Shown: one piece after another, positions 23,527 through 54,622 of the stretch
How the letters are laid out: every line of letters starts with the position of its first letter
Position numbering within the stretch: the first letter of the stretch is position 1
Origin: Paraconexibacter algicola
GTDB taxonomy: Bacteria; Actinomycetota; Thermoleophilia; Solirubrobacterales; Solirubrobacteraceae
Assembly: GCF_003044185.1 (NCBI RefSeq)
Contig: NZ_PYYB01000001.1
Location: forward strand, 2,438,978-2,502,977
Length of the DNA stretch: 64,000 bases
Direction: 5' to 3'
Translations under genes and position numbers: made by a program
Notes under the pieces: generated by a model
Databases searched by the model: none
What the model saw: the letters and a program-made list of their open reading frames with translations, nothing else
Told to the model about the DNA's origin: nothing

Positions 23527-23533
23527 CGACCGG

Positions 23534-23557: not shown

Positions 23558-23714
23558 TCGTGTTTCCGAGGCAAGCCGGGCACCGGCTGGGTCTCAATTT
23601 GGTCACATCTGTCCTCGGAAACGGTATCGGCACTCGCGGTTGGAGTCGGAGTCCGGCGTACGGGCACCCCACGAAGCGTGGGGCGTTGTCCGAGCGCGCG
23701 GACATGATGGATTC

Positions 23715-28757: not shown

Positions 28758-28796
28758 CAGGGGGGAGTAGTTCGGCTCTCACGCGACTAAGAAGGT
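28758..28796 (+). promoter_or_regulatory. Element promoter, copy 1 (fused sigma-factor operon)
   Basis: CAGGGGGGAGTAG (from 28758; core GGGGGGAGT 28760-28768), 15 bases, then CGCGACTAAG with CGACTAAG at 28784-28791, 5 bases, then ATG at 28797. Copies 2 (37073) and 3 (51599, reverse strand) have the same boxes, the same 15-base spacer and the same 5-base distance to the start codon. This spacing fits an ECF promoter whose transcript begins at or next to the start codon (leaderless). Confidence 0.8.
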
Positions 28797-28970
28797 ATGG
28801 CCAGTCTTCTCTCCTCGGCACAGCACACCTCAGGCGGCCGACCCCCCGATCGTCGCAATGTCCTACCGCGCGGCGATTCGCAAAGTGCGCGAACGGGTAC
28901 GGCGCCCCGCGAGCAAGGGAGCGGCACGGTGTCGGACGCGTTCACCCGGAAGGCCCGACGGTGGCACTAG
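28797..28970 (+). CDS. 57-residue leaderless reading frame ahead of the sigma gene
   Basis: An ATG sits exactly 5 bases after the promoter box, as in the two other promoter copies. It opens a 57-codon frame (MASLLSSAQHTSGGRPPDRR..., basic, no motif) whose TAG overlaps the GTG start of the sigma gene by 10 bases. It may be a small protein or a leader whose translation delivers ribosomes to the sigma gene. The start position is supported by the three-way promoter comparison; no homologue is recognised. Confidence 0.5.
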   Translation: MASLLSSAQHTSGGRPPDRRNVLPRGDSQSARTGTAPREQGSGTVSDAFTRKARRWH

Positions 28971-30223
28971 CGCCACAGGCCGACGAGCGCGCGGAGCTCG
29001 ACCGAGCTTTCGAGGAGCATCGCGCCGCGATCATGACGATGCTGCGCCTCGAGTTCGCAGGCGTGGACGACCACGAGGACCTCTATCAGGAGGCCTGGGT
29101 CGAGGCGCTGGAGAAGATCAAGCAAGGGACTGAGGTCAGGAATCTCCGTGCGTTCCTTCGGTTGATCGCTTGGCGTCGCGCGAGGGACAAGCTCCGCAAC
29201 GTCGCGGCGACGCCCGAGGATCCCGAGGGCTACCTCCTTCGTGATCAGCTGGATAGCGGCCCGCTCCCTGACGAGATTGCCCAGGTCCACATCGACGCGA
29301 AGGCCGTCAGAAACGTCATCGACGAGCTCGACGAGCGGCGGGCCGCCGCTGTGAAGATGCGCTTCGACCTCGGCATGAGCTCGACCGAGATCGAGCGTGC
29401 GCTCGGGATCAGCCGCAAACGGCTCGACAAGCTACTCGGGAGCGCGTACCGACTGATCGAGGAACAGCTGGTCGCCGATGAGACCGGCGAGGCGCCGTGG
29501 ACCCGGAGACAGCGAAGCCTCCTCTTCACGTGTTTGTCGGGTATGGCGAGCGAAGGGCAGCGCGCGCGGGCTCAGCGGTTGGTCGACACCGATCCGGCCT
29601 GCAGGGCGATGCTCGCGCAGATGCGCGCGTCGCTCGACAAGGTCGCGGCGGCGCTGCCTGTGCCCGTCGTGCTCGAAGGTGAGACGGAACGCTCGTTGCC
29701 CTTCTTCGACCAGCTTCAGAACGCCGTCACGAGCGTCCGCGAGACGGTGGCGTCCCTGCTTGGACGCTCTGGAGGCCAGGCGTCGACGTTCGAGCCGGTG
29801 GCCGGTGGCCTCGCCGGGGTCAGCGCCGCGGGCGCCGCCAAGGTCGTCGTCGTCTGCATAAGCCTCGGGGCAGGGGCGGCGACGTGCGTCGAGTTCGGCG
29901 TGGTTGGCGGAGACCCGAAACCGGAGAACGCCCAGGCCAAGGAGTACGAGAAGCGGCCGGCCGCGAAGGAGGAGCAGGTGGCGGCTGTCGCACCAAGGCC
30001 GACGCCGACTCCACGGCCCGTAGTACGGAAACGATCGAAGCCGAAGGCCGCGACTCCGGCGGCGACACCGTCCGCTCCGGTCCCCAAGACCAACGGGCCG
30101 GCGGCAGCATCGCCGGCGCCCGCCGGAAGCGTCGAGTTCGGGCCCGGCTCAGTCGGGTCAGTCCCGGCATCGCGGCAGCCGGCAGCGGCGCCCGTCGACG
30201 GCGGAGGCGAGTTCACACCATGA
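28961..30223 (+). CDS. ECF sigma factor fused to an anti-sigma-like, membrane-spanning tail
   Basis: 420 residues from a GTG with GGAAGG 7 bases upstream. Residues 14-80 are sigma region 2 (DDHEDLYQEAWVEALEKIK) and 105-165 region 4 (STEIERALGISRKRLDKLL). Residues 185-232 resemble a zinc-finger anti-sigma helix bundle without its Cys/His ligands. A transmembrane segment lies at about 284-309 (VSAAGAAKVVVVCISLGAG), and the remaining 110 residues are Pro/Ala/Lys-rich and would face outside. So the sigma factor may be held at the membrane until released. It probably reads the three element promoters, including its own. The stop overlaps the region before the next ATG by 4 bases (ATGA at 30220). 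Confidence 0.75.
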   Translation: MALAPQADERAELDRAFEEHRAAIMTMLRLEFAGVDDHEDLYQEAWVEALEKIKQGTEVRNLRAFLRLIAWRRARDKLRNVAATPEDPEGYLLRDQLDSGPLPDEIAQVHIDAKAVRNVIDELDERRAAAVKMRFDLGMSSTEIERALGISRKRLDKLLGSAYRLIEEQLVADETGEAPWTRRQRSLLFTCLSGMASEGQRARAQRLVDTDPACRAMLAQMRASLDKVAAALPVPVVLEGETERSLPFFDQLQNAVTSVRETVASLLGRSGGQASTFEPVAGGLAGVSAAGAAKVVVVCISLGAGAATCVEFGVVGGDPKPENAQAKEYEKRPAAKEEQVAAVAPRPTPTPRPVVRKRSKPKAATPAATPSAPVPKTNGPAAASPAPAGSVEFGPGSVGSVPASRQPAAAPVDGGGEFTP

Positions 30224-33020: not shown

Positions 33021-36000
33021 TCACCCGACCTGGGGTTTCCAGCCGGGAGCTAGCGGGTCGTCGCCGACGAGCCGCAATTGCTCCGAAATCGGGAGTCGGC
33101 TGAAGGCATGCCACACTGGCAGTGGACCGCTGGATGTCGCGCGCGCCCGCTGCGTTACCTCCGCCATTGCCAGGTCGATTGGATCCGGGCCGGATCCGGT
33201 GTGCCGCCTCAGACTGCGGAACAGACTCGTCAGGTAGCCGGCGGCCAAAGGGGCCGGCGACGCGAGCGTCGCGAGAACGAGCAGCGTCGCGCAACTGCTC
33301 AGATCGGTGCCACGACCAACTGCGCTCGCTCGCAGAACGGAGTGAACCAAGTCGTCCAGGGTGTCGGGGCGTTCGACGTAGCTAGCCGCGAGCGCGGCGT
33401 GCCATGCAGCAAGCAGTACGGCTGGCTCGACCGCCCATCCTTCGGGCGCGAGGACCGTGGTTGCGGTGGCGCGCGTCAACTCGAAACCGTCAGCTCTTAC
33501 CCGAGCGGTCAGGTCGTTGGCGGATACCGACAGGTATCGACCCCCGCCGGACCGAAGATCCCACAGCGCAGCGTCAAGTTGGGCCTGCGAAATAGCTCCT
33601 CTGGCCTCAAGCGCTGCGAGGAGCCCCACGGTGCCAAAGGTGGGCACCCCGAGCTGACGAGCAAACCGCCTCAGATACCGGTCGTCGCTGAAGAAGGGAA
33701 GGTTGGCCTGTTGCGCGACCGCGATTGCACCTAGCCACGTCGACGCCGAGGGGTCGAGGTCAGTGTCGCGCAGAGCTCGCTCGAGATCCTGCTCTCCGCT
33801 GGCGTCAGGGTCTCTCACAACTAGACGTGCAAGGCTGCTTTCCGCGCTGTCCAGACGGTCGCGCATGCCGTTCAGGACATCGAGGTTGTTCTCGACGATC
33901 TGAAGCGACTGTCCGTCGCTGTCGAAGGTGAATGACCCGGGGGACCGGTCCGGGTCGAGCGAGGCCAGCCCGTGACGTGCGCGCGGGAAGTCGGCGGCGG
34001 CGGCGCGGGCGATCGTCGACCCGGGTAGCGAACTCGCCATAAGCTCTCGTAGGTCCGCGCCCAGCAGGGTGTGGACGGCCAACGTTGAGAGGTCCCAAGA
34101 TGCGGCGCCGGCAATTGCTGCATCGGCTGCCTTCCGTTCGTCGCGGTTCTCGGCGTCCACCGGATACGTCAGCGGGAGGACGTTCGAAAACAGCCAGACC
34201 TCGAGCGGAGTCCTCCCTAGGAGACAAAGCAGCGAAAGAGACGCCTGCCCACGCCAGATCTGCTCCTGAATTCTGCGCGCGAAAAGGTGTCGGTGTTTCG
34301 CCTGCGCCTCCAACCGGCGGATCCAGTCCGACCCATCATCGATGGGTTCGGCTTGGATGATTTCGGACTCAGGGAAGCGTTCGGAGAAATCAGTGAACGT
34401 CAGTCTCACTCGCGCTTCGAGTTCCGGCGGGAGGTCGTCCTTCGCTTCGCCGGCGGAGACCGTGATCAGCATCGCCTCGAGCCGCTCATCGCGACGGTCG
34501 ATCTCGTCGGAGAGGTCGGCTATCCGTTGGAGTGCTTCGGGTAGCGAAAGGCTCTGGGATGCCAGCTGCGCGACCAGAAGACGTTCGTTGTCCGAACCGG
34601 GTTCGAGAGAAGCGGCGTCGAGGATCGAGAGCGCGGCCACGGGATCTCCGACACGAGCGAGCGCGTCTGCGGCCGCCCACGGTGCTTTCGGGCTTGCAGG
34701 AAGTACGGCGTGCCAGCGTGTAGCGAACTCAGCCAGCGCACCCCATTGCTGGCGCTCGGCGAGGGAGCTCGCCGCGCGGAAGGCGGCCTGCTCGCGCCGG
34801 AAGTACGACAGCTTTTCGTCGTTTAGCAGCTCCGTCCACAGCTCCTCGGCCTCCGTAATCCGTCCGATCTCGTGCAGCGCCACGGCCTTGCGGAAAAGCT
34901 CGACCTTCGGAGGATCGGTTCCCAGGGACTCAACGAGACTCAGCACCTTTTCCCACTGTTGCTGCTCGGCCAGAAGGTCGATCAGCGCGCGTTTGCCGTT
35001 AACCGTGTCGCTGTATGGCAGAAGCACCATCTCTGCATCGCCGATGCGATCGCGACGGGAAAGGTGGGCGGCATGCAGAGCGGCGGCGTACAGTTTGCGA
35101 TCGTCGAGCAGCTCTGCCGCGGATTCGTTCCATTCGGCGTCGAAGTCAGACGATGCGATCAGACGAGCATGGGCCACCTCGCTGCGCAGCCTCGCTTCGA
35201 GCGACTCGTCGGCCAGAAGCGCATCCAGCGTTTCGACAGCGGCTTCGATCCGTCCTTCGGCGAGCGCGACGCGTGCCATAAGCAACCGACTGGCGGGCGA
35301 AGCCGGCGCACGGGCGGGCGCGAACCTCCGCGCAAGCGCGAGCTCATCGCAGTCCAGCAAAGCCAGCGCCATCGTCGTTCGAGCATCCGTTGGCAGCGTG
35401 TCGATCCCGCTCACAAGCCACCACTCGGCGAGCTCAGGCACGAGTTCCGGGCGCCCCAGTCTTTGCAGAACACCGAGGAGCCGCGAATCAATCTGAAGAG
35501 CCATTCCTGGCTGTTCAGTCGCGAGCGATTCGACGGCAACCTGTGAGAGCAAATCGGCTGCCTCCACGTACGCCGCCGCGTCGGGCGATGCCGCGCTCTC
35601 CTCGCGGCGGAGCAGCATGATGGCAAGGCGTTCAGCCAGCAAAGGACTCCAGCGCAGAGCCAACGCCGCCCGGACATCGGCGATGCCGTCAGCGTCGCGC
35701 CCGAGCGCCGAGAGCGCAGAAGCCATTCCGGCTACCAGGAGCGCTCGTTGGCGGTCGCTAGATGCGGTGATACAGCGGAGTGCTTCAAGCTGGCTGTCGG
35801 GTGCTTCAAGACGCAGCGCCTCCCGAATGGCATACCCCGAGTTGGTGGGCTGGGCCCGTGCCGCTGCGTGCAACCTCTCCTCCGCCTCGTCGCTCGGATC
35901 GTGATCGGCGATAAGGCCGAGGAGCTCTACGCGCGGAGCATCGGGTTCGTCTATCCGTCGGTTCAGCGCCTGCACCGCGGGTGAAACACGTTCGAGAACG

Positions 36001-36992
36001 AGCAACATGCGGGCCGCGGCCTCAAGGCGAAGTCCGACGGCTTGTTCCGCAATCGCCTCAAGTGACCTCGCGTCGTCGGCAATTGCTCTTGAGAGGGTGG
36101 TTGCACCCTCGGGATCGTCAGTCGACAGTTCGTCAACGATGCGACGGAGCTGAAGCGACGTTGACAGAGACGCGCTCGCGCGTTCGTCGATCCGTAGCAG
36201 GTCGGAGGCGATATCAAGGACAGGTCCATCTGGCTCAACGGCTCCGTCTGGGTCGTCGTTCCCGGCGAAGCTCTTGGCGGTTGTTCGGGGTTCTTCGGCT
36301 TGGCCGGTCGCGTAGAAATAGCTCGAAAGCCTCACCGGCGACCGGGGGGCAACTTGGAGCGTGTCCTGGACGGTTGCCAGCCACCGAGCCCAAGCGTCTT
36401 GACCCTCGTCATGGCACTCCACTGGCCCGAGTGCGGTCACACAGGCCGACCCGAGCACGAGCAAACCGTTGATTGCTCCCGGCGGACCGTGCACGGCGCA
36501 CGCGTCTTCGGCGGCCTTTGACAAGTTCGCGGCAGTCAGGCCCTTAAAGCCAAAAGCGAAGACGGCAGGAATGGGACGCTCGCCAGCCTGTCCGACGTGC
36601 ATCGCTCGAAGCTCTGCGGCGGCCTCGGCGCACTCCTCAATTGCGGCCGTGTTTAGGTTGGATTTCACGGAGACGACGGCGAGGACAGCTTCGATCCCGA
36701 CGATGCCGGGCTGCGAGTCGCCGGTCAGGTTCAGCCCTACCGTGCTGTCGTAAACGATCACGTCCCATTCGCGGCTGGGGCCGAGATCAGGAGCGGTAAT
36801 TTCCCCGCGGACGTAGCCGTACGCTGGCATGTACTGCATGAGGCGGCCGCGGACGAGCTCCTCGCGGGCCGAGCCGATGGACGGCCCGTGCTCTGACGAG
36901 GATGCATGGATTTCAGCTTGTGCGGCGAGCGCTCGCTGATCGGCTCGGAAGCTCTCGAGGATGCGTTCGCGTGATGCCACCTCGCCCAGCAT
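33021..36992 (-). CDS. Giant nuclease-like / helical-repeat / PIN-like protein, possible new defence protein
   Basis: 1323 residues from ATG 36992 (a GTG near 37034 is also possible). Residues 15-180 resemble the DUF6602-type PD-(D/E)xK-like domain: SAREELVRGRLMQYMP, EWDVIVYD (D77, D82), GIEAVLAVVSVKSNL. The usual Glu before x-K is Ser (S108-V-K110), so the nuclease may be inactive or use E101. Residues 200-1000 are repeated helix pairs of TPR type (e.g. LALAEGRIEAAVETLDALLA). Residues 1075-1150 read like the second half of a PIN ribonuclease (FFSDDRYLRRFARQLGVPTF, D1103/D1104, then GTVGLLAALEARG). The sensor-plus-two-effectors layout fits a defence protein, but no described system is recognised. 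It is transcribed away from the secretion operon, and its 5' region abuts promoter copy 2. Confidence 0.65.
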   Translation of the reverse strand: MLGEVASRERILESFRADQRALAAQAEIHASSSEHGPSIGSAREELVRGRLMQYMPAYGYVRGEITAPDLGPSREWDVIVYDSTVGLNLTGDSQPGIVGIEAVLAVVSVKSNLNTAAIEECAEAAAELRAMHVGQAGERPIPAVFAFGFKGLTAANLSKAAEDACAVHGPPGAINGLLVLGSACVTALGPVECHDEGQDAWARWLATVQDTLQVAPRSPVRLSSYFYATGQAEEPRTTAKSFAGNDDPDGAVEPDGPVLDIASDLLRIDERASASLSTSLQLRRIVDELSTDDPEGATTLSRAIADDARSLEAIAEQAVGLRLEAAARMLLVLERVSPAVQALNRRIDEPDAPRVELLGLIADHDPSDEAEERLHAAARAQPTNSGYAIREALRLEAPDSQLEALRCITASSDRQRALLVAGMASALSALGRDADGIADVRAALALRWSPLLAERLAIMLLRREESAASPDAAAYVEAADLLSQVAVESLATEQPGMALQIDSRLLGVLQRLGRPELVPELAEWWLVSGIDTLPTDARTTMALALLDCDELALARRFAPARAPASPASRLLMARVALAEGRIEAAVETLDALLADESLEARLRSEVAHARLIASSDFDAEWNESAAELLDDRKLYAAALHAAHLSRRDRIGDAEMVLLPYSDTVNGKRALIDLLAEQQQWEKVLSLVESLGTDPPKVELFRKAVALHEIGRITEAEELWTELLNDEKLSYFRREQAAFRAASSLAERQQWGALAEFATRWHAVLPASPKAPWAAADALARVGDPVAALSILDAASLEPGSDNERLLVAQLASQSLSLPEALQRIADLSDEIDRRDERLEAMLITVSAGEAKDDLPPELEARVRLTFTDFSERFPESEIIQAEPIDDGSDWIRRLEAQAKHRHLFARRIQEQIWRGQASLSLLCLLGRTPLEVWLFSNVLPLTYPVDAENRDERKAADAAIAGAASWDLSTLAVHTLLGADLRELMASSLPGSTIARAAAADFPRARHGLASLDPDRSPGSFTFDSDGQSLQIVENNLDVLNGMRDRLDSAESSLARLVVRDPDASGEQDLERALRDTDLDPSASTWLGAIAVAQQANLPFFSDDRYLRRFARQLGVPTFGTVGLLAALEARGAISQAQLDAALWDLRSGGGRYLSVSANDLTARVRADGFELTRATATTVLAPEGWAVEPAVLLAAWHAALAASYVERPDTLDDLVHSVLRASAVGRGTDLSSCATLLVLATLASPAPLAAGYLTSLFRSLRRHTGSGPDPIDLAMAEVTQRARATSSGPLPVWHAFSRLPISEQLRLVGDDPLAPGWKPQVG

Positions 36993-37070
36993 CTCACCGA
37001 GCGCGGGTGGAACCCGCTCCGGTGCGCGGACCACCGCGCCCCCGGAGCCGCCGGACTGCGCGGCAGAACT

Positions 37071-37109
37071 CAGGGGGGAGTAGTTCCCGACTCGCGCGAC
37101 TAAGTAGGT
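37071..37109 (+). promoter_or_regulatory. Element promoter, copy 2 (secretion operon)
   Basis: CAGGGGGGAGTAG (GGGGGGAGT 37073-37081), 15 bases, CGACTAAG 37097-37104, 5 bases, GTG at 37110. Boxes and both distances are identical to copies 1 and 3. It drives the type IV secretion operon and overlaps the upstream region of the divergent giant gene. Confidence 0.8.
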
Positions 37110-37400
37110 GTGACCCCTCCGACCGTAGCGACCGAGAAGCGCGGCTTTCGCATCTCTGGTGACGGCGTCCTCCCCGTCCAGCCAGCGCGACGCCCCGTAC
37201 CTGCAGCCTCCCGCCGCGGGCTCGCGACGATTCTGGCCATCGGCGCGAGCCTCGTTGCTGCAGGGCTTGTCGCTACGGGGAGGGGGGATCACAACCCGCA
37301 GGTTCCGTTCTCGATCGCGGCTCCCCGCGGCGAAGTGCGTATCGAAGAAGGGCCTGCACCCACTGACCACGCTCAGCCACGTCTCGTAAAGGCGCGCTGA
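37110..37400 (+). CDS. Small single-pass membrane protein opening the secretion operon
   Basis: 96 residues from a GTG placed 5 bases after the promoter box, the same distance as at the other two promoters. A basic N-terminus (residues 1-35) is followed by one membrane segment (GLATILAIGASLVAAGLVAT, about 37-56) and a short outer tail. No family recognised. Its TGA overlaps the ATG of the TcpC-like gene by one base. It is probably a minor component or regulator of the conjugation machine. Confidence 0.6.
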   Translation: MTPPTVATEKRGFRISGDGVLPVQPARRPVPAASRRGLATILAIGASLVAAGLVATGRGDHNPQVPFSIAAPRGEVRIEEGPAPTDHAQPRLVKAR

Positions 37401-38221
37401 TGCTCGAGGTGGCGACGCAGCGCCTTCATACGACGCGGTGGCTCGCGCGTGCACCGCGCGCCGGGCTTCTCGCTACGTGCGCCGTCCTGAGTGCCGTCGG
37501 GCTTCGAGATCTGTTCGTGACGCCGGCAGCGCCTGCGCCGCGACAGTCAGCGCCAGCGCAAGCCGATCCGGGGTCGCAGGCCTTCGCCGAAGCGTTCGCG
37601 CGCGACTACCTGACGTGGGACCGCGACGGCTCGGAGTCCTCGACGACCCTGGCTGCGTACGGCGTCGACCTGATCCCGCCGCGGCCGCCCGGTGGACTCG
37701 ATCAACGAGTCCGGTGGACCTCCGTCGCGGGTGCTCGGCGCGCGACCGGTGGCACCGAGGTTGTCACGGTCATGGCGCAGACGACGCGCGGGCGCGTCGC
37801 ACTCTCCGTGACCGTTCGGCGAGATGTGGCGGGCGCACGCCAGGTGGTTGGTCAGCCGGCGGTGGTCGGCGCTCTTCCCCGTGCCGAGAACCCGGCGAGA
37901 CCAGGAGCCGGCCGCGAGGTCACCGAACCGCAGCTCGTTGCAGCTGTGGAACGGGCACTGCGGAACTACCTCGCGCGCGATGGCTCGGATCTTCGCGCCG
38001 ACCTCTCGAGCGACGCGAAGCTCGTGCTCCCCGACCGTGCCCAACGTGTCCTCTCGGCGGACCCGGTGATCTGGGTGCGTCTCGGGTCGCGGGTCGCGAC
38101 GACCGTTCGCACGGCAGACCGAGATGGCGTCCAGATGACCCTGCGGTACGAGCTGGCGGTCACAAGGCAGGCGGGGCGATGGCTCGTACGCGCGATCCAC
38201 ACCAACCCGGAGGTGCAGTGA
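37400..38221 (+). CDS. TcpC-like (VirB8-type) conjugation protein
   Basis: 273 residues: membrane segment at about 20-37 (AGLLATCAVLSAVGLRDLF), then two NTF2/VirB8-like halves. FARDYLTWDRDGSESSTTLAAYG near residue 70 is the typical TcpC beginning (FA..YLtW...R...L..y), and VERALRNYLARDGSDLRADL starts the second half. TcpC-type proteins form the VirB8-like ring on the outer membrane face in Gram-positive conjugation systems. One base overlaps the start of the next gene. Confidence 0.8.
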   Translation: MLEVATQRLHTTRWLARAPRAGLLATCAVLSAVGLRDLFVTPAAPAPRQSAPAQADPGSQAFAEAFARDYLTWDRDGSESSTTLAAYGVDLIPPRPPGGLDQRVRWTSVAGARRATGGTEVVTVMAQTTRGRVALSVTVRRDVAGARQVVGQPAVVGALPRAENPARPGAGREVTEPQLVAAVERALRNYLARDGSDLRADLSSDAKLVLPDRAQRVLSADPVIWVRLGSRVATTVRTADRDGVQMTLRYELAVTRQAGRWLVRAIHTNPEVQ

Positions 38222-46552: not shown

Positions 46553-47260
46553 ATGTCAAAAGTCGCCGCAGATCGCTCGATCTCTCGCAAAGTCACGCGC
46601 CGCGTACTCGCTGGCGGCGAGCGCGCGTGGTCGGTCTCGGACTTCGACGACCTTGGCACGCCGGACGCGATCAACAGCGCTTTGCGCCGCCTCGTCGAAG
46701 ACAAGCAACTGCGGCGCGTCCGGCGCGGCGTCTATTGGCGTGGGCGCGAGAGCAAGTTCGGGATGACGCCCACTCCGGGGCATGCCGTCGTTCGCGAGGT
46801 CCTCGGCGACCACGAGGCCATCGGCGCCGCCGAGTGGAGCGCCACCAACGCATTGGGCCTGTCCACGCAGGTCCCCAGGCAGCTGACGCTGGCGATCTCT
46901 ACGCGCTCCCCGCGCAACCTGCCGCGCGACGTCAAGGTTGTTCGACGCGACGCGCGCCGCGGCAGGCGCACGTCGGAGCTCAACGAGGCTGAGGTCACGC
47001 TGCTGGAGGCCCTGGACGCGTGGGACCGCTATGTCGAGGTCCCTGCCGACGAGGCGCTCGACCGCTTCGCGCGTGCGCTGCGTTCCCGCGAGGTCCGCAT
47101 CGACCGAATCGTTCGCGCCAGCACGACCGAACCTCCTGCGGTTCGCGAACGCCTGCGCGCGGTCCTGCAGCACGCCGGGCACGCACAAGCGGCCGGGCGG
47201 GTGCCGCGCGCCCGCGACAAGCGAACAGCCGACAAAGCTCTGCGGGTCCTCGTCGGATGA
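46553..47260 (+). CDS. abiEi: AbiEi-family antitoxin (type IV toxin-antitoxin)
   Basis: 235 residues. An N-terminal winged helix (AWSVSDFDDLGTPDAINSAL, RRLVEDKQLRRVRRGVYWR) precedes the AbiEi antitoxin domain (GDHEAIGAAEWSATNALGLS). It neutralises the toxin without direct binding and represses the operon. ATG 46553 lies 8 bases after the operator repeats. The ATGA overlap with the toxin gene couples translation. Such pairs stabilise mobile elements and can abort phage infection. Confidence 0.85.
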   Translation: MSKVAADRSISRKVTRRVLAGGERAWSVSDFDDLGTPDAINSALRRLVEDKQLRRVRRGVYWRGRESKFGMTPTPGHAVVREVLGDHEAIGAAEWSATNALGLSTQVPRQLTLAISTRSPRNLPRDVKVVRRDARRGRRTSELNEAEVTLLEALDAWDRYVEVPADEALDRFARALRSREVRIDRIVRASTTEPPAVRERLRAVLQHAGHAQAAGRVPRARDKRTADKALRVLVG

Positions 47261-48231
47261 CGCTCCTGCGCGACGACGGCGACGACTTCGACGGCGCCGT
47301 CGGCCTGGCGGCCGAGCGGACTGGCTACCAGCCCGTCTTCATCGAAAAGGACTACTGGGTCTGCCAGGTCCTGCGGGTGCTCTGCGGCCCCGATGGGTAC
47401 GGGGCGGACGTCGTCTTCAAGGGCGGGACCAGCCTGTCGAAAGGGTACGAGCTGATCGACCGGTTCTCCGAGGACGTCGACATCCTCGTGCAGAAGACCG
47501 AGGCCCAAAGCCGCAAGGAGTGCGAGCGGCTGCTTGAGCAGATGTCCACGCGGGTGGCTGGCCAGCTCGGCTTGACCAGTAACGAGGCTCGGCCACCCGG
47601 GCGTGGCAAATGGCCCAACCGCGCCGACATCCTGGTCTATCCCACCAGGTTGGAGGCGCCGGCCATCGAGGGCATCATCGCCGGGGGCGTTCAGCTGGAA
47701 CTCGGTTACGCCGGCGGTGAGTGGCCAAGCCAGGGTGTGGAGATCACCCCGCTGCTGCTGCTGGCTCAGGAGGTCGCTGCGGAAGGGTACGAGGACCTCG
47801 GGTCGTTCCGAGTCCGGGCGCTGCTGCCCGTTCGAACCTTGCTGGAGAAGCTCTCGGTGCTGCACCACGTCGGCGCACAGTTCGTCGACTCCTCGACCGC
47901 CAACGATGGGCGCTTCGGTCGCCATTACTACGACGTGTTCCAAATCCTCGGGCACGCAGACACGCTCGCGCGCCTCGCCGACCGCGAAGCCTTCGACGGC
48001 GTCGTCGAGGACGTGCGCCGAATCAGCTCCAATCACTACGGCGGCTCGACTCCTCGGCCCGACGGCGGGTACGCCGACAGCCCTGCGTTCGCGCCGGGCT
48101 CCGACTCCGAGCTACGGGGCTACCTCGAAGACAACTACGAGCGCGCCCGGGCGCTTGCCGCACGTGACGCGGTTTGGCCGAGCCTCGGCTCGATCTTCAA
48201 GCGAGTCGCGGAACAGCGCGACCTGCTCTGA
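47257..48231 (+). CDS. abiEii: AbiEii-family nucleotidyltransferase toxin
   Basis: 324 residues with the nucleotidyltransferase core: VVFKGGTSLSKGYELIDRFS with GGTSLSK at 56-62, and SEDVDI with D73 and D75. The C-terminal region (RFGRHYYDVFQILGHAD) is also typical. AbiEii toxins add nucleotides to tRNA acceptor ends and stop growth. Full length and apparently intact. Confidence 0.88.
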   Translation: MTLLRDDGDDFDGAVGLAAERTGYQPVFIEKDYWVCQVLRVLCGPDGYGADVVFKGGTSLSKGYELIDRFSEDVDILVQKTEAQSRKECERLLEQMSTRVAGQLGLTSNEARPPGRGKWPNRADILVYPTRLEAPAIEGIIAGGVQLELGYAGGEWPSQGVEITPLLLLAQEVAAEGYEDLGSFRVRALLPVRTLLEKLSVLHHVGAQFVDSSTANDGRFGRHYYDVFQILGHADTLARLADREAFDGVVEDVRRISSNHYGGSTPRPDGGYADSPAFAPGSDSELRGYLEDNYERARALAARDAVWPSLGSIFKRVAEQRDLL

Positions 48232-48679: not shown

Positions 48680-51562
48680 CTACGGCCCGAGGTCCGGACC
48701 AGCCTCGATCTGCGGAGCGACGTCCGGAGCGTCGACCTCGGGCAGGTCAGCGGTCTGAGCGTCCGCCAAGTCGAGACCACGTAGCTCGAGCTCGGCGGCG
48801 AACGAGCCGTGCCGTCCGAGCGCTTCGTCGACTTCGGCCTGGAGCTCTGCGCCCCGTCCTCGCCATTCCGTAGTGATTGCCTGCTGTCGCTCGAGCGCCT
48901 CGCCTAGAGCGGCCCGCGCTGCCCGCTTCCTCCGTGGCGTCGACTCGAGCTCTGCCGCGAGTTCGCCCTGACGCGCCTCAGCCTCGGCCAAGAGCCGCGC
49001 GATCCTGTCGCGCTCCTCGCTCGCCCGTCGCAGATCTCGCTCCGCAGCTCGCAGATCGCCGAACGTCCCGACCGGCCGTTCGCTCTCGTCGATCTCCTGA
49101 CCCTTGGTCGAGTCGAGCGCGAGCTGCTTGCGTCGCGAGGGCTTGAGCGCGGCGTTGAGGTCCTCGATGAGCGGATCGGGCTCGGGCTCGACACCGGGGA
49201 GCGTCGGCTCGGGACGACCCAGCGAGACCGTGTAGTAGCGCGCCTCGATGCGGTGGCGACTGAGCGCGGTGTAGCCCCACTCGCGATAGAGGTCGTCCGA
49301 GCCGAGGACGAACGACTTGTCGACGGTCGCTCCCTGCGCCGCGTGCGCGGTGAGCGCATAACCGTGGTCGAGGTGGCCGGCGTCGAGGTACCCCGCATCG
49401 AGCTTCACGGTGTCGCCGCCGGCCACTTCCACCAAGATGGCGCGGCGGTCCGGGTCTACGTCCACCACGACCCCGCGCGCGCCGTTGACGATGTCGAGCC
49501 GGCGGTCGTTGCGCTTGGCGAGGACGCGATCCCCGACGGCGAAGTCGCGTTCGTGCGCGGTCACCTCGGCGTCCCCGAGTCGCCCGTCGGCCATCATGAG
49601 CTGCCGCGCGCGGTGGTTGAGATCGGCGACGTCGGTGCGGCGGTGGGCGATCATCACCGTGTCCAGCTGAGGGTCGCGGGCGGCGATCCACCAGTCGGAG
49701 ACGAGCGAGCGCCGCGTGGACTCGGCGGTGGGGCTGGAGACGATCCGTCCGCGGTCCCGGTAGGCCTCGGCCCACTGCTCGATCCGCCCGCTGCGAAGGT
49801 GCGCCAGTGCCTCCCGGTCCCATTCACTCTGCTGGCGCATGACGGTCCGAAGCTGCAGCGCTCCGATCCGCTTCGCGATGCCGCTCAGTCCGCCGCCGGC
49901 ATCAATCTCCGGAAGCTGATGGTCGTCGCCGACGAGGACGAGCTTCGCGTCGGCGCGCTCGGCGGCGGATGCGAGAGCCGCGAGCTGGCGGGAGCCGACC
50001 ATGCCGGCTTCGTCGACGACCAGGACGCCGCCCTTCGGCACGCCGTGTCCCTGCGCGATCTGCCGCTGGAGGCGAGCGACGGTGTCGCTGCGGATGCCCG
50101 ACTGCGACTCCAGTTCGACGGCCGCTCGGGCAGAGAGTGCGCAGCCGACGACCGGTACGCCGCTCTCGGCCCACGCCTCGCGGGCCGCGTCGAGCGCGAA
50201 CGTCTTGCCGGTACCGGCCGCGGCACGAACAACCTGGACCCCGTCGCCGGAGCGGGTGAGCCCGCGGATGACCACCGCCTGCTCCTGGGTCAGTGTCGGT
50301 CGGCCGTCGATCGCCTCTTCGACGGCTTCCGGTCGCGCGCGCGCCACGTCTGCCGAACGCCTGCGGTGGCTGCCGTCGATGAGCTCGCGCTCGATGGCGA
50401 GCATCTCGCGCGTGGAGTACCGGCTACCGCCGGCCGGGGTGGCGGCCTGCGCGGGCAGGGGCACCGCTGCGTCGGACGCGAGCCAGACGTCGGTAAGTCG
50501 CTCGAGCTGTTCGACCGACGCTCCTGCGCGGTGCTCGGTGGCCCAGTCGCGCAGGACGTCGCGCCTGTCGAAGGTGCTCGCGTTCTTCGTCACGCCGTGC
50601 GGACTGGCGAGCCGCTCGGCGGCTTCGAGGACGGGACGGGGCGAGTCGTCCTGAGGTCGAGCACGACCAAGCACCGCGTCGATCTCATCGCAGCCAAAGC
50701 CGAGCTCGGCGGCGCGCGCTCGCCAGACCTGATGCAGCCGGTCGGGTGCCACGGAGTAGTCCTTTCGCTTTCGCGTCTCGAGGATGGCGAGCTCACGCGC
50801 GCGCCGTCCGCGGCTTCCGACTTCGTTCAGGTGCTGCTCGACCTCGTGAGCCCGCTGCGAGAAATGCCGGAGGACGCCCGGGTCCACACCGCGGATCTCC
50901 GCCATGCCGTTCTCGACGGCGAGCCATTCCACGCCGAGGTCCCGGGTGAGCTGTTCGCGCAGCGCTGCTTGGTAGAGGTAGCCGGCGGTCTTCGCGTGGG
51001 CGTAGAGCATCCGGCCATCGAGGGTCGACCAGGTGCCCTCCGCCTTCCCCGCGTTGGCGACGACCGTGTGGGTATGGAGCTGCGGATCTCCCGCACGTGA
51101 CGAGCGGTGACGGAACGCTGCAGCAACGACCCCGGACGCGGGGAGCACGCGCTTCCCGCCGGCTCCGCGACGGACCTGGCAGGCCTCGCGCTCGAGGTAG
51201 CCGAGTGCCTGGCGGACGGCTTCGTCATGCGCCTCGCGGGCGAGCCGGGACGTCCGCTCGTCGCCCACGCCGTAGAGAAGAGAGACGGACTTCGGCGCAC
51301 TGAAGGTGAGGTCGTACCCGTCGACGGTGACCTTCGCCGTCGCTGGCCGCAAGGAGGTCTTCTGGTCCGGCGTCGTGCCTCGGATGATCGCCGTGAACTT
51401 GTCAGGCTCGACCGTGCCGCTGAGCCCGAGCTCGTCCGCGCCGGTCCCGATCCAGGACCCAGGTGCTTCGCCGCTGCCGGTGTAGTAGTCGTCCCGGCCT
51501 TGGGCGACGGATTCGATGTAGTACTGCTCCTTGCCAGCGGCGAGTTTTCCGATCGACAGCAC
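48680..51562 (-). CDS. MobF-family conjugative relaxase-helicase (TraA/TrwC-like)
   Basis: 960 residues from a GTG 5 bases after promoter copy 3. The relaxase domain has Tyr pairs Y14/Y15 and Y26/Y27 and the HUH metal site in DPQLHTHTVVAN (H163, H165; H152 nearby). The helicase domain has AAAGTGKT (447-454) and VVDEAG (D517/E518) and the late motif HGYALTAHAAQGATVD. The C-terminus is an acidic coiled coil. It nicks oriT, stays bound to the 5' end and unwinds the strand for transfer through VirD4. MobF relaxases with a TcpC/TcpE-like channel are an actinobacterial combination. Confidence 0.92.
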   Translation of the reverse strand: MLSIGKLAAGKEQYYIESVAQGRDDYYTGSGEAPGSWIGTGADELGLSGTVEPDKFTAIIRGTTPDQKTSLRPATAKVTVDGYDLTFSAPKSVSLLYGVGDERTSRLAREAHDEAVRQALGYLEREACQVRRGAGGKRVLPASGVVAAAFRHRSSRAGDPQLHTHTVVANAGKAEGTWSTLDGRMLYAHAKTAGYLYQAALREQLTRDLGVEWLAVENGMAEIRGVDPGVLRHFSQRAHEVEQHLNEVGSRGRRARELAILETRKRKDYSVAPDRLHQVWRARAAELGFGCDEIDAVLGRARPQDDSPRPVLEAAERLASPHGVTKNASTFDRRDVLRDWATEHRAGASVEQLERLTDVWLASDAAVPLPAQAATPAGGSRYSTREMLAIERELIDGSHRRRSADVARARPEAVEEAIDGRPTLTQEQAVVIRGLTRSGDGVQVVRAAAGTGKTFALDAAREAWAESGVPVVGCALSARAAVELESQSGIRSDTVARLQRQIAQGHGVPKGGVLVVDEAGMVGSRQLAALASAAERADAKLVLVGDDHQLPEIDAGGGLSGIAKRIGALQLRTVMRQQSEWDREALAHLRSGRIEQWAEAYRDRGRIVSSPTAESTRRSLVSDWWIAARDPQLDTVMIAHRRTDVADLNHRARQLMMADGRLGDAEVTAHERDFAVGDRVLAKRNDRRLDIVNGARGVVVDVDPDRRAILVEVAGGDTVKLDAGYLDAGHLDHGYALTAHAAQGATVDKSFVLGSDDLYREWGYTALSRHRIEARYYTVSLGRPEPTLPGVEPEPDPLIEDLNAALKPSRRKQLALDSTKGQEIDESERPVGTFGDLRAAERDLRRASEERDRIARLLAEAEARQGELAAELESTPRRKRAARAALGEALERQQAITTEWRGRGAELQAEVDEALGRHGSFAAELELRGLDLADAQTADLPEVDAPDVAPQIEAGPDLGP

Positions 51563-51601
51563 ACATACTTAGTCGCGCGAGAGGCTGTCGACTCCCCCCT
51601 G
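51563..51601 (-). promoter_or_regulatory. Element promoter, copy 3 (relaxase)
   Basis: On the reverse strand CAGGGGGGAGTCG (GGGGGGAGT 51599-51591), 15 bases, CGACTAAG (51575-51568), 5 bases, then the relaxase GTG at 51562. Boxes and distances are identical to copies 1 and 2. The short distance leaves no room for a ribosome site, so the relaxase mRNA should be leaderless. Confidence 0.8.
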
Positions 51602-51611
51602 GATCGAGCTC

Positions 51612-51654
51612 GCACTCGAAGGAGTGCAACTGTATGCCGGTCCAGTTGCTCCTT
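51612..51654. other. Inverted repeats ahead of the relaxase: candidate oriT
   Basis: GCACTC-GAAG-GAGTGC (51612-51627) forms a small hairpin. Overlapping it, AAGGAGTGCAACTG (51619-51632) pairs with CAGTTGCTCCTT (51643-51654) with a 2-base bulge. MobF nick regions usually lie beside the relaxase gene and have such inverted repeats. The nick site itself cannot be read from sequence. Confidence 0.4.
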
Positions 51655-51680: not shown

Positions 51681-52172
51681 TCAGGCGAGGTCGTGACCGT
51701 GCTGGCGAAGGGTGGAGCGGGCTTTGACGAGCTGCTTGTTGACGGCGGTCAGGGAGAAGCCGGTGGCCCTGGCGATCTCGGTGTAGCTGTGACCGGCGAT
51801 GAGCAGGGCGAGGCATTGACGGCGGCGCTGCGGAAGGCTCGCGACGGAGTTGAGGAGGTCGCGGAAGGCCACCTGCTCCTCGATGTCCGCTGCGACACCG
51901 GGGTGCCCCGTGTCCGCACGCGACGTGCCGGTGATGCCGGTCGCGCGATCCTCGGCGACGAGCCGCCACGCTTCCCGCGTGGCGACCTGCACGAGCCACG
52001 GGAACACCGTCTCGCGGTCGGGCCCATACCGCAGCAGCTGCATCCACGCGAAGCTGCAGGCGTCCTCAACCAGCGCTTGGTCGCCGCCGCGGACGCGTGT
52101 GCGGACGACACGCTGAAGGCGGTCGGCGTGCTCGCGGTACAGGGCGGTCTCATCGCCGCGCAGGGCACTCAT
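51681..52172 (-). CDS. ECF-like sigma-70 factor encoded by the element
   Basis: 163 residues. Region 2 at about 8-75 (LYREHADRLQRVVRTRVRGG, VEDACSFAWMQLLRY, VFPWLVQVATREAWRLV) and region 4 at 104-155 (LPQRRRQCLALLIAGHSYTE, GFSLTAVNKQLVKARSTLRQ). It is short and without a C-terminal extension. It is a second candidate for reading the three shared promoters. Last gene of a four-gene chain with 4-base overlaps, upstream of and parallel to the relaxase. Confidence 0.8.
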   Translation of the reverse strand: MSALRGDETALYREHADRLQRVVRTRVRGGDQALVEDACSFAWMQLLRYGPDRETVFPWLVQVATREAWRLVAEDRATGITGTSRADTGHPGVAADIEEQVAFRDLLNSVASLPQRRRQCLALLIAGHSYTEIARATGFSLTAVNKQLVKARSTLRQHGHDLA

Positions 52173-52396
52173 GACGCGCCTCCCGGGTGGAGCGCCTCGT
52201 AGAAGGCGATGAGGTCGCGCATCTGGGAGATGGCCTGGTGGCCGTGTTCGCCTGCGGCGGTGAGGAGGTCGAGGACCTCGGGGGTGGTGCGGTGTGCGCG
52301 GCGGGTGACGTAGTCGCCGAGGAGCTGGGCGAGGGCGCGGTCGGTCTCGTCGGCGGCGAGCCGTTCGGCGGGGTCGGGGTAGTCGAGCGGGCTCAT
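52169..52396 (-). CDS. 75-residue protein, sigma operon gene 3
   Basis: 75 residues (MSPLDYPDPAERLAADETDR...), helical and acidic, no membrane segment or known motif. Its stop overlaps the sigma start and its start overlaps the stop of the gene before it, each by 4 bases, so the set is translated together. It might be a regulator of the sigma factor by position only. Confidence 0.6.
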   Translation of the reverse strand: MSPLDYPDPAERLAADETDRALAQLLGDYVTRRAHRTTPEVLDLLTAAGEHGHQAISQMRDLIAFYEALHPGGAS

Positions 52397-52686
52397 GCTG
52401 CGTCTCGCTCTCCGCGGACCCAGCCGGGGGCGTCGGGGTAGATGCGGCGCAGGTCCATGGGGACGAGGCCGCTGAGCTCGGTCTGGGCGAGGTAGTCCAT
52501 GACGACCGCACGGAGCTCCTCGACGTCCGGGATGTCGGCCTCCACGAGGTAGGCCTGACCCTCGCCCGCGGCGGCGGGGAGGTCGTTGAGGCGGTAGCCG
52601 CGCGATCCGCGGAGCGCCTGCAGGATGCGGTCCTCGCCGGCGGCGGTGGTGTAGGCGGCGACTTGGACGGAGGTGAGCGGGCTCAT
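52393..52686 (-). CDS. 97-residue protein, sigma operon gene 2
   Basis: 97 residues (MSPLTSVQVAAYTTAAGEDR...), mixed alpha/beta, with ADIPDVEELRAVVMDYLAQ in the middle. No family recognised. 4-base overlaps on both sides. Shares the initial MSPL with the next gene, probably because of the overlap sequence rather than homology. Confidence 0.6.
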   Translation of the reverse strand: MSPLTSVQVAAYTTAAGEDRILQALRGSRGYRLNDLPAAAGEGQAYLVEADIPDVEELRAVVMDYLAQTELSGLVPMDLRRIYPDAPGWVRGERDAA

Positions 52687-52988
52687 GCGTTGCGCTCCTT
52701 CCAGGCGGCGGTGCTGCCGTGGCCTTCGAGCTCGTGGTCGCGCACGCGCGCCGCGTCCCCGCGGGACTGCATGTCCCTCTGGACGTTGCGGATCTCCCGG
52801 GTGCGGTCCGACCTGGAGTCGGGGGTTCGGGCCTTGAGCGCGGCGATCTGCCGCGAGGCGTCGGCCTTGCTGTTGGGCGGCGTGAAGCTCACGCCGCGAT
52901 CGAGTGCGAGCTGGCGCAGGTAGCGCAGCTGCTTGCTGGTCGGAGGCGGCCCGCTCTTTGAGCTGTCGGCCTTGTGGTGTTCGGACAT
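52683..52988 (-). CDS. DUF3072-like small protein, sigma operon gene 1
   Basis: 101 residues. PTSKQLRYLRQLALDRGVSF followed by TPPNSKADASRQIAALKAR is the DUF3072-type motif (P-T-x-x-Q-x-x-Y-L-x-x-L), frequent on actinobacterial mobile elements. Function unknown; it may bind DNA or a protein partner. First gene of the chain that ends in the sigma factor. Confidence 0.65.
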   Translation of the reverse strand: MSEHHKADSSKSGPPPTSKQLRYLRQLALDRGVSFTPPNSKADASRQIAALKARTPDSRSDRTREIRNVQRDMQSRGDAARVRDHELEGHGSTAAWKERNA

Positions 52989-53018: not shown

Positions 53019-53067
53019 GTCAAGCCCGGTCCGTCAGGACTCGCCGAAGGCGACCCGCGGGCTTGAC
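53019..53067. repeat. Perfect 10-base inverted repeat
   Basis: GTCAAGCCCG (53019-53028) and CGGGCTTGAC (53058-53067) are separated by 29 bases, upstream of the sigma operon. It may be an operator or recombination site; no further clue. The surrounding 52989-53206 has no gene. Confidence 0.5.
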
Positions 53068-53206: not shown

Positions 53207-53545
53207 ATGAAGGGGGGTCAGTCAGGGAGCGCGGTCACCACGTACGCCGGCATCTATGTGCGCGCAGTCCAGGGTGAGCGCACCCACATCACATGCTGCG
53301 TGCGTAGCAACCGTGGCGGGCGGAGCGAGCTGGTGCTCGCCTCCGGATCGCGGGTGCTCCTGGACTGGGAGACCACGGCCGACAAAGGGCACGTCGCGGC
53401 CGTCGTACTGCGGCACTGGCTCGGCCGCCCGCCGAACCGCACCGAGCTCCACGTCTTCCTGGACGAGATCGCCGCAGCGTGGGGTGCCGGCCAGCCGTGG
53501 GAGCTGACCGGCACCCAGCTGGCTGCCGCCGGCTTCGCGAGCTAG
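53207..53545 (+). CDS. 112-residue protein of unknown function, faintly DUF6166-like
   Basis: 112 residues (MKGGQSGSAVTTYAGIYVRA...). The pattern of a central beta region, VLRHWLGRPPNRTELHVFLD and an ending WELTGTQLAAAGF resembles DUF6166 proteins found on plasmids and elements, but the similarity is weak. Convergent with the ArdC-like gene, overlapping it by 4 bases. Confidence 0.5.
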   Translation: MKGGQSGSAVTTYAGIYVRAVQGERTHITCCVRSNRGGRSELVLASGSRVLLDWETTADKGHVAAVVLRHWLGRPPNRTELHVFLDEIAAAWGAGQPWELTGTQLAAAGFAS

Positions 53546-54465
53546 GCGCCCGGGATCGGGACGAGCGGACTGCCGGGCGGGTCGCCGACGCAGTCCTCGA
53601 TGCGCTTGGCGATCTGGTCGACCCACGCCGCGCAGCGCTCCACGACCTCCATCGGCGTCCGCTCGCTCCAGGAGGTGAGGAAGGGGATGGAATAGTCGCT
53701 GGTATCCAGTCCGATCGAGCCGCACACCGTGTAGGCGACCGACTCCACGACGAGCTCTTCCTGGGAGTAGGTCAGCTCGACCTCGCCCTTCTCGATCGAC
53801 CAGCGCATCAGCGCGTGCCCAAGCTCGTGCACCATCGTCTTGACCTGATGGTTCACCGAGTTCGCCTCGTTCAGGGAGATGACGCGCAGCTCGGGCATGA
53901 AGCACCCGCCGGTCCCGTCGGGCATCCGCTCGATCACCACGCCGCAGCCCAGCTCGCCGGCCAGTGCACACAGGCGCGGGAACGCCCAACCCAGCGAGTC
54001 GCCCTCGGGCTCGATGATCGGCGGGTCCAACGGGACCGGCTCGGCCGGCGGCGGCAGCGGCACGACCTGCGAGCGGTCGAACACCGGTCCGAGCCGGAAC
54101 CGCACGCGCGGCTTCTCATTGGCCGGGGCCCCGGCCTCCATCCACTCCTTCAGCTGCGCCTTGGACGGCGGCATCGGGACCCACACCCGGATCGCCCGCT
54201 CGCCCTTAGCCACGCAGTAGCCCAGCCGTAGCCACGCCCGGAACCCCGCGACCCTCGACGCCTCCGGCATCTGCAACGCGATCAGCAACTGGTTCGAGAG
54301 CGAGTACCGGTGGAAGTGCCGGCGCAACCCCAGCCACCGCTGCCACCCCTCGCTCGACCGCAGCGCCTCGACCGCCTCCTGCGCCCGCTGACGGTCCGTC
54401 TCCCGGCGCGCCTGGCGCTCCTCCTCCGTCTCCTTCGACGGTCGCTGCTTGGTACTCGTCGACAT
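53542..54465 (-). CDS. ArdC-like antirestriction protein with ImmA/IrrE-type metallopeptidase domain
   Basis: 307 residues from ATG 54465 (GGAGG 6 bases upstream). The N-terminal ArdC single-strand-DNA-binding domain has HRYSLSNQLLIALQMPEASR and FRAWLRLGYCVAKGERAIRV (about residues 40-85). The C-terminal zinc peptidase has MVHELGHALM (HExxH) and EELVVESVAYTVC (the E/A helix). ArdC proteins protect incoming single-stranded conjugative DNA from host restriction. Its presence marks this region as still belonging to the mobile element. Confidence 0.8.
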   Translation of the reverse strand: MSTSTKQRPSKETEEERQARRETDRQRAQEAVEALRSSEGWQRWLGLRRHFHRYSLSNQLLIALQMPEASRVAGFRAWLRLGYCVAKGERAIRVWVPMPPSKAQLKEWMEAGAPANEKPRVRFRLGPVFDRSQVVPLPPPAEPVPLDPPIIEPEGDSLGWAFPRLCALAGELGCGVVIERMPDGTGGCFMPELRVISLNEANSVNHQVKTMVHELGHALMRWSIEKGEVELTYSQEELVVESVAYTVCGSIGLDTSDYSIPFLTSWSERTPMEVVERCAAWVDQIAKRIEDCVGDPPGSPLVPIPGA

Positions 54466-54622
54466 CCGACGCCTCCGATGCATCTCGGTGGCCCCGCCCG
54501 GTGCGGGACCGATCCCCAACGACCAGGCACGGCAGGGATGCCGTGCCACGATCGAAAGGGGTCGGTGTTGCAACGGAGCCGGGGGCGCGCGCCGCCTGGG
54601 CCGGAGCGTCCCGCCCACGCCG

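What the first reader, a model, noticed from the sequence alone, without database searches (positions are those of the whole stretch)
51681..52988. Four-gene chain ending in a second sigma factor, with two small unknown proteins
All four frames overlap by 4 bases. The first is DUF3072-like and two have no known relatives. A second sigma factor on one element suggests a cascade, or that this one reads the shared promoter while the fused one is a sensor. The small proteins could be non-classical anti-sigma factors.
Basis: partly seen in the sequence, partly recalled or inferred. Interest (0 to 1): 0.5.

Follow-up and report, generated by a model that had tools for sequence, protein, structure and literature searches.

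The report
First-entering operon of conjugative element
The four small genes sit beside the point where this soil bacterium's transferable DNA is probably cut and sent, so they are likely the first genes to enter a new cell, and a folded DNA signal in front of them, shared with other early genes, may let them switch on at once.

Summary
The chain is real: four minus-strand frames (52988 to 51681), each overlapping the next by 4 bases. The two 'unknown' proteins have relatives in other genomes of the same family and order, and the linkage is conserved: DUF3072 and the 97-aa protein are adjacent or fused in 21 of 28 DUF3072 loci.

Context changes the meaning. A TrwC-type nic hairpin (51612-51636) lies between the sigma gene and the MobF relaxase gene. 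By homology with TrwC, the transferred strand leaves through the chain first, as its template. The chain is then the leading (establishment) operon.

In front of it is a covarying hairpin (53019-53067) with no Rfam match. It recurs before DUF3072, 97-aa, SSB, DUF4326, HTH_17 and related sigma genes; other strong hairpins precede many ArdC and some ParB genes. Mismatch asymmetry suggests that the template strand folds, as an ssDNA promoter (Frpo/ssi type) would need. No -10 box is evident in the window copy, so that step is inference.

Anti-sigma role: unsupported for the 97-aa protein; open for the 75-aa protein, since 5 of 6 genomes with it hold this sigma subfamily. The shared promoter (three exact copies in 4.74 Mb) more likely belongs to the membrane-anchored fused sigma.

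The parts
52683..52988 (-). DUF3072-like protein, 101 aa (gene 1 of the chain)
52393..52686 (-). 97-aa protein (P2), predicted beta-beta-beta-beta-alpha domain, no Pfam family
52169..52396 (-). 75-aa protein (P3), predicted three-helix bundle, no Pfam family
51681..52172 (-). ECF-type sigma factor (P4), 163 aa; conserved subfamily linked to ArdC
53019..53067 (-). covarying branched hairpin (models R1/R2) 30 nt before the ATG of gene 1; GTCAAG...CTTGAC ends; best place in the whole genome
51612..51636 (+). candidate oriT/nic: hairpin GCACTC-GAAG-GAGTGC followed by AACTGTATG, TrwC type; exact nick base not determined
48680..51562 (-). MobF (TrwC/TraI-type) relaxase-helicase
53542..54465 (-). ArdC-type anti-restriction metallopeptidase, predicted leading-region gene
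   Evidence: scanned as 53542-54618; start
54508..54566 (-). strong hairpin before ArdC (different sequence from the chain's)
51568..51598 (-). shared promoter-like motif GGGGGAGT-N15-CGACTAAG before MobF
37074..37104 (+). same motif upstream of the type IV secretion operon
28761..28791 (+). same motif upstream of the fused sigma factor
28961..30223 (+). fused sigma factor: sigma domains plus a C-terminal extension with a hydrophobic segment (about 280-315) and a conserved tail

Best explanation
The chain is the leading (establishment) operon of a MobF conjugative element. Nicking at the oriT-like site at about 51.63 kb would send the plus strand rightwards, so the templates of sigma, 75-aa, 97-aa and DUF3072 enter the recipient first. 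The hairpin in front of DUF3072 would fold on that single strand and start transcription of the operon towards oriT before the second strand is made, as Frpo/ssi promoters do. The products would then act in the recipient: P2 as a helper of the incoming DNA, the sigma factor as an early switch. Shown: gene order, linkage, covarying structure, recurrence before establishment-type genes, and a conserved nic-like site. By homology: the direction of transfer. Inferred: that the hairpin is a promoter, and what P2, P3 and the sigma factor do.
For: Position: a TrwC-type hairpin plus AACTGTRTG lies about 45 nt from the sigma stop codon. A strict pattern for it is met upstream of 8 of 30 MobF genes (the window's own and seven others) and in 0 of 369 control windows, and once in the 64-kb window. 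The relaxase matches TrwC and TraI structures, and in TrwC the hairpin is 5' of the cut (PMC4176350, passages). Sibling element G035 has the order ArdC, P2, P3, a 179-aa gene, sigma, nic site, MobF. Hairpin: on 12 sequences not used to build model R1, 14 of 22 pairs show two-sided changes and 0 of 500 shuffles reach that. Its 22 non-redundant true-strand hits of 29 bits or more in 47 sources lie before DUF3072 (12), P2 (7) or SSB (2), one at a contig end. It lies directly before a related sigma gene in L195/L162 and L197. Control: ArdC upstreams reach fold z -3 in 11 of 19 cases against 28 of 310 other genes, Fisher p 6e-7; DUF3072 upstreams in 6 of 20, p 0.010. Strand: 16 A.C against 6 G.T cells on the coding strand (35 rows) means G.T on the template strand, so the template strand is the likelier folder (p 0.026). 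TTGAC, the -35 consensus, ends the 3' arm in 44 of 51 hits (the model itself favours it).
Against: In the window copy the hexamer 17 nt after TTGACA is GGGCGC, and the chain-type group (16 rows) shows little A+T rise there (0.25 against 0.12). Only the other group (35 rows) does (0.55 against 0.20), and it includes uncertain hits. TAnnnT-like hexamers are not enriched over shuffles. The model reaches 29 bits before only 12 of 28 DUF3072 genes; the others fold into other hairpins by eye. G035's chain has no model hit in front of it. Weaker R2 hits often lie near transposase-like genes (named by eye). In the eight seed sequences the number of pairs with two-sided changes does not exceed shuffles (3 against 2.6). 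The nic pattern was shaped on some of the same upstream stretches. The direction of transfer rests on homology. The mismatch count is small and its rows are related. A limited look found no integrase or tRNA-end repeat for this element.
Confidence: 0.55

Rival explanations
1. The hairpin works as RNA or as an insulator, not as an ssDNA promoter. [quoted passage not shown]
For: EGeRS1 regions are structured stretches before ArdC and other establishment genes of a Gram-positive plasmid; the tested one showed no constitutive promoter and blocked read-through (PMC8708921, sections 13 and 20). No -10 box is evident in the window copy. The structure stands close before the start codon or ribosome site.
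Against: Mismatch asymmetry is the reverse of what a coding-strand RNA should show: 16 A.C against 6 G.T cells. In pLS20 the non-template strand is transferred; here the template strand is predicted. The GTCAAG/CTTGAC end is nearly fixed while the stem above it varies.
Confidence: 0.3
2. One reading: a sigma cascade in which the small proteins restrain the chain's sigma factor as non-classical anti-sigma factors.
For: P3 co-occurs with this sigma subfamily: 5 of 6 genomes with P3 have it, four (G000, G007, G035, G036) and G408 on the same contig. Direct P1-P2-sigma chains are seen in L076 and in L080/L081, which are near-identical.
Against: P2 has no such sigma in the stretch read in 21 of 31 loci, is fused to DUF3072 (four loci) and to MobF (one), and is predicted beta-rich with no Pfam match. 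In L018 P3 is present with no sigma on a 14-kb contig; in L023 the sigma lies beyond ArdC.
Confidence: 0.2
3. The hairpin is a single-strand initiation site for making the second DNA strand (priming) more than a gene promoter.
For: Frpo was described for both transcription and primer RNA synthesis (title in the reference list of PMC11541004). In L030 copies stand before SSB and before DUF3072, with a primase-like gene between them.
Against: Two copies in one element, each closely before a gene start (L030, L064), fit gene control better than one priming site.
Confidence: 0.15

Closest known systems
Frpo/ssi single-strand promoters of F and ColIb-P9 leading regions
   Same: Structured stretch closely before SSB and other leading-type genes, two copies in some elements, predicted template-strand transfer, TTGAC at the stem end.
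   Different: Different sequence and branched tip; actinobacterial; no -10 box evident in the window copy; a sigma factor is in the operon; activity untested.
EGeRS1 regions of pLS20
   Same: Gram-positive conjugative element, inverted repeats directly before ArdC and other establishment genes, several copies.
   Different: EGeRS1 is 400-600 bp; in pLS20 the non-template strand is transferred; here the core is about 50 nt and the template strand is predicted to enter.
R388 TrwC oriT (nic site)
   Same: Small GC-rich hairpin directly 5' of an unpaired stretch with TGT, next to a MobF relaxase gene.
   Different: Stretch after the hairpin is AACTGTATG instead of GTATTGTCT; no nick mapped.
ECF sigma factors
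   Same: Regions 2 and 4, 163 aa; best solved relative RpoE/SigE of 2q1z (E 6.5e-4).
   Different: Encoded in a predicted leading operon near ArdC; no adjacent recognised anti-sigma gene; below the cut-off in the 25 best of 49 NCBIfam rows shown.

Membership tests
Frpo/ssi single-strand promoter | stable hairpin in ssDNA before leading-region genes | tested here: met
   DNA fold of the predicted transferred strand z -4.13, 0 of 200 shuffles; recurrence and covariation
Frpo/ssi single-strand promoter | -35 and -10 boxes rebuilt in the stem | tested here: inconclusive
   TTGAC in 44 of 51; A+T rise at spacer 17 only in the non-chain group; window has GGGCGC
Frpo/ssi single-strand promoter | transferred strand is the template | tested here: inconclusive
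   predicted from the TrwC-type nic hairpin; not mapped
Frpo/ssi single-strand promoter | transcription by RNA polymerase from ssDNA | not testable with these tools
   needs an in vitro or conjugation assay
EGeRS1 (pLS20) | non-template strand transferred | tested here: inconclusive
   the opposite is predicted here; the feature in pLS20 is from PMC8708921
MobF oriT | hairpin next to nic beside a TrwC/TraI-type relaxase | tested here: met
   window and seven other MobF upstreams of 30 by a strict pattern, 0 of 369 control windows; relaxase match; the nick itself is untested
ECF sigma factor | sigma-70 regions 2 and 4 without region 3 | tested here: met
   Pfam hits at 11-72 and 105-155 of 163 aa; r2 half a bit below cut-off
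Anti-sigma factor (for P2 and P3) | known anti-sigma domain | tested here: inconclusive
   no Pfam match for either; folds have no significant match
DUF3072 | score above Pfam gathering cut-off | tested here: not met
   23 bits against 27.5; called DUF3072-like only
Rfam families | match at gathering score to the hairpin | tested here: not met
   only the tRNA in window 23-56 kb, and only three tRNAs in 16 loci, most of them with related hairpins

The most novel reading that the evidence does not exclude
Actinobacterial conjugative elements carry their own family of single-strand promoters and place a sigma factor in the first operon read from them, so that the incoming strand reprograms the recipient's RNA polymerase before it is even double-stranded.
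Probability: 0.22. Interest if true: 0.85.

Novelty: new variant of a known kind. Interest (0 to 1): 0.62.

Why it matters
In the papers I saw, single-strand promoters are shown for plasmids F and ColIb-P9; for pLS20, a Gram-positive plasmid, the same explanation was considered and judged highly unlikely by its authors, and candidates by similarity reach further in PMC11541004. A covarying hairpin family before establishment-type genes of Solirubrobacterales elements would extend the idea to Actinomycetota and give a direct, cheap test. It would also put a sigma factor among the first genes to enter, which my searches of the held library did not find described. It could serve as a marker for leading regions and counter-defence genes in a poorly known group.

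Tried and rejected
Hairpin as the oriT itself: rejected because two copies occur in one element, each before a gene (L030, L064), and a separate TrwC-type site exists. Known RNA family: no match at gathering score; the permissive search gave one chance-level miRNA row elsewhere in the chain. P2 as PUR, PC4 or WGR fold: top Foldseek rows are PURA (E 0.58) and PC4 (E 0.13), best VIA-align Z 6.7, none significant; P3 no significant match. Shared promoter beside distant fused-sigma relatives (G065, G074, G071, G067, G089): one loose match each in G065 (inside the TrbL gene) and G089, two bare CGACTAAG in G074 away from the secretion genes, and no repeated 36-nt stretch in the two elements compared, G065 and G074. 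Chain on annotated plasmids: no tblastn match for L018's P2 or for the window's sigma. Direct repeat of the tRNA-Met 3' end: none in the window. Integrase by similarity to G035's: none. Full fused-sigma genome search gave no answer twice; its C-terminal part was searched instead in 199 genomes. Papers by search listing only: (one search found none). Passages: PMC11541004, PMC9849209, PMC3264647, PMC4176350. Passages and sections 13 and 20: PMC8708921.

Full report
Observation. The four frames are on the minus strand at 52988-52683, 52686-52393, 52396-52169 and 52172-51681, each overlapping the next by 4 bases. The last is an ECF-type sigma factor, the first a weak DUF3072 match (23 bits, cut-off 27.5), and the middle two have no Pfam family. 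Downstream on the same strand is a MobF relaxase; upstream are a 112-aa frame on the other strand and an ArdC-type gene. The element has a type IV secretion operon (about 37.9-46.5 kb), AbiEi/AbiEii and a second sigma factor with a C-terminal extension at 28961-30223. The named loci with a P2 relative are Solirubrobacterales, Conexibacter, Paraconexibacter, Svornostia and Thermoleophilaceae (11 loci). No integrase was found by the limited look taken, so 'conjugative element' rests on relaxase and secretion genes.

Relatives and linkage. The 97-aa protein (P2) has relatives in 15 of 101 genomes, own included; the DUF3072-like profile hits 46 of 399 class genomes, many weakly. In 37 sequence stretches searched with profiles, 28 loci hold a DUF3072-like gene at E below 1e-14, and P2 is adjacent (gap under 200 nt) or fused in 21 of them, fused in one frame in 4 (L077, L078, L079, L082); L080 and L081 are near-identical. 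The seven exceptions are L028 and L033 (P2 elsewhere on the contig), L066, L067, L074 (contig edge), L075 and L083. In L029 P2 is the C-terminal part of a MobF relaxase. Relaxases travel with the DNA (established for TrwC), which suggests that P2 acts in the recipient. Of 31 loci with P2, 10 have a chain-type sigma of 50 bits or more in the stretch read and 21 do not, some on short contigs. P3 is in 6 of 146 family genomes, and 5 of the 6 hold a close chain-type sigma; the sixth, G010, shows none on its 14-kb contig. Eleven rows reach 150 bits; of the nine with a locus, eight have an ArdC relative inside it, and in the ninth, G035, ArdC is about 1.5 kb away.

The oriT. Between sigma and MobF the plus strand reads GCACTC-GAAG-GAGTGC-AACTGTATG (51612-51636). 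Similar hairpins with CACACAGTTGCAC on the MobF strand stand before other MobF genes. A strict pattern is met in 8 of 30 upstream stretches, the window's own among them, and in 0 of 369 control windows. The pattern was shaped after reading these stretches, and where the match began inside the protein the stretch may miss the true upstream. Further variants (L225, L226, L236, L237, L243) were seen by eye and are not counted. The relaxase N-terminus matches TrwC and TraI in the PDB. In TrwC the hairpin lies 5' of the cut, in the oligonucleotide GCGCACCGAAAGGTGCGTATTGTCT-ATAGCC (PMC4176350, passages). By that homology the transferred strand is the plus strand, leaving rightwards through the sigma, P3, P2 and DUF3072 templates and then ArdC. 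In F, most tested leading genes are read from the transferred strand as template, ygfA being the exception (PMC9849209, passages). This geometry matches.

The hairpin. Model R1 was built on eight loci; within these seeds the covariation score and cells exceed all shuffles, but the number of pairs with two-sided changes does not (3 against 2.6). R1 found the window copy, not in the seed, with 56.5 bits at 53019-53067; in the whole genome nothing else exceeds 23 bits. One search (47 sources, 730 kb) gave 30 rows of 29 bits or more; four duplicates of the same contig and four opposite-strand rows of the palindromes were dropped, leaving 22: before DUF3072 12, P2 7, SSB 2, contig end 1. In L019 the hairpin lies inside the called frame, ahead of the conserved part of P2. 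The loci had been chosen by DUF3072 or P2, so nearness to them is partly selected; the SSB copies and the position close before the start are not. On the 12 non-seed sequences 14 of 22 pairs show two-sided changes, 92% of cells pair, 0 of 500 shuffles reach either, and slid partners give 32-52%; that alignment was fitted to the model and leans towards it. Model R2 on 146 family genomes gave 57 rows in 33 genomes. Of the 26 rows of 48 bits or more, 12 precede DUF3072, 2 SSB, 2 DUF4326, 4 HTH_17-like genes (one checked by Pfam, three by eye) and 6 are unassigned. Rows below 48 bits often lie near transposase-like genes (by eye) and are uncertain, except L162/L195 (46 bits), which stands 31 nt before a related sigma gene; L197 (56 bits) does likewise. 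Both those sigma genes are outside the closest subfamily (114-119 bits).

Control for hairpins in general. For 402 called genes in the window element and 29 loci, the best fold z-score of three upstream windows was computed. At -3 or lower: ArdC 11 of 19, DUF3072 6 of 20, genes outside the named families 28 of 310 (Fisher 6e-7 and 0.010); SSB only 2 of 11, sigma 1 of 8, P2 1 of 25. Of the 28 outliers I identified 11: six ParB, one DUF932, one primase-like, and three ordinary ones (a dehydrogenase, a TPR and a MOSC protein). As ssDNA on the predicted transferred strand the window copies fold with z -4.13 (chain) and -3.39 (ArdC).

Which strand folds. In 35 distinct hairpins read on the coding strand (nine opposite-strand rows of A10 dropped), 22 pairs give 676 Watson-Crick cells, 6 G.T, 16 A.C and 48 others. 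If the coding-strand RNA were selected, G.U should exceed A.C. The reverse is seen (p 0.026; 14 against 4 in the 25 rows outside the R1 seed loci, p 0.015). Rows are related and numbers small, so this is a lean, not a proof.

Promoter reading. The outer pairs GTCAAG/CTTGAC are nearly fixed while the inner pairs vary. TTGAC is found in 44 of 51 hits; five of 56 rows (L141, L142, L145, L146, L152) were dropped by eye beforehand, and the model itself favours TTGAC. After it an A+T rise stands at positions 19-22, after a 17-nt spacer, over all 51; split by group it is 0.55 in the rest and only 0.25 in the chain-type group, and the window reads GGGCGC there. TAnnnT-like hexamers are no commoner than in shuffles. 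So a classic -10 is not shown for the window copy. RNA polymerase with another sigma, an atypical -10, or a non-promoter role all remain possible.

The two sigma factors. The pattern GGGGAGT-N14-17-CGACTAAG occurs exactly three times in the 4.74-Mb genome, with none for the reversed control: before the fused sigma, the secretion operon and MobF. In G035 related motifs precede the secretion operon, the gene after the fused sigma, MobF and, more weakly, the fused sigma. In the stretches read of G007 (60 kb), G064 (40 kb) and G016 (three stretches, 59.5 kb) there is a chain-type sigma, no fused sigma by tblastn, and no exact motif; one-mismatch matches (the G007 one lies inside P2) and three bare CGACTACGT were not followed. 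The fused sigma has a hydrophobic segment near 280-315 and a conserved tail ending GGGEFTP. Distant relatives lie with secretion genes in G065 and G074 but show no such motif. I therefore give the transfer-gene promoter to the fused sigma, as inference, and the chain's sigma to establishment. What the chain's sigma reads is unknown.

Small proteins. P2 is predicted as four strands and a helix (pLDDT 76, 11 sequences) and P3 as three helices (pLDDT 85, 4 sequences), both without significant structural matches. P2 as a nucleic-acid binder is a guess from topology.

Literature. DUF3072 is in no paper of the held library. Searches for leading regions with actinobacteria, with sigma factors, and for ssDNA promoters with Streptomyces or actinobacteria listed no paper whose title or abstract describes this. 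Closest are Frpo/ssi (PMC11541004, PMC9849209, passages) and EGeRS1 of pLS20 (PMC8708921, sections 13 and 20).

Verdict. The chain as the first-entering operon is well supported (about 0.8). The hairpin as a single-strand promoter is the likeliest single role, at less than even odds (about 0.45). The stated confidence of 0.55 covers the combination with a DNA-level role of the hairpin.

Noticed in passing
28961-30223: Sigma factor with a predicted membrane segment and a conserved C-terminal tail (GGGEFTP), followed with a 4-base overlap by an Ig-like protein with a signal-like N terminus; relatives of the pair lie with secretion genes in G035, G065 and G074.
   Followed up: partly
L029 5505-8195: A MobF relaxase carries the P2 domain as its C terminus.
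   Followed up: partly
L077, L078, L079, L082: DUF3072 and P2 fused in one reading frame.
   Followed up: yes
33021-37454: 1477-aa frame with DUF6602 and PIN-TPR-GreABC domains between the fused sigma and the secretion operon; a possible defence gene.
   Followed up: no
23508-27788: SIR2-domain protein right after the tRNA-Met gene; a possible defence gene at the element's edge.
   Followed up: no
46553-48231: AbiEi/AbiEii toxin-antitoxin pair between secretion genes and relaxase.
   Followed up: no
L138, L145, L164: R2-like hairpins beside what look, by eye only, like IS110-type transposase genes.
   Followed up: no
whole genome G000, contig 6 at 1257-2192: A second MobF relaxase (48% identical N-terminus) in the same genome.
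   Followed up: no
L131, L151, L155, L160: Hairpins followed by a further GC-rich inverted repeat and an HTH_17-like gene (only L131 checked by Pfam), with an integrase-like gene downstream in some, by eye.
   Followed up: partly
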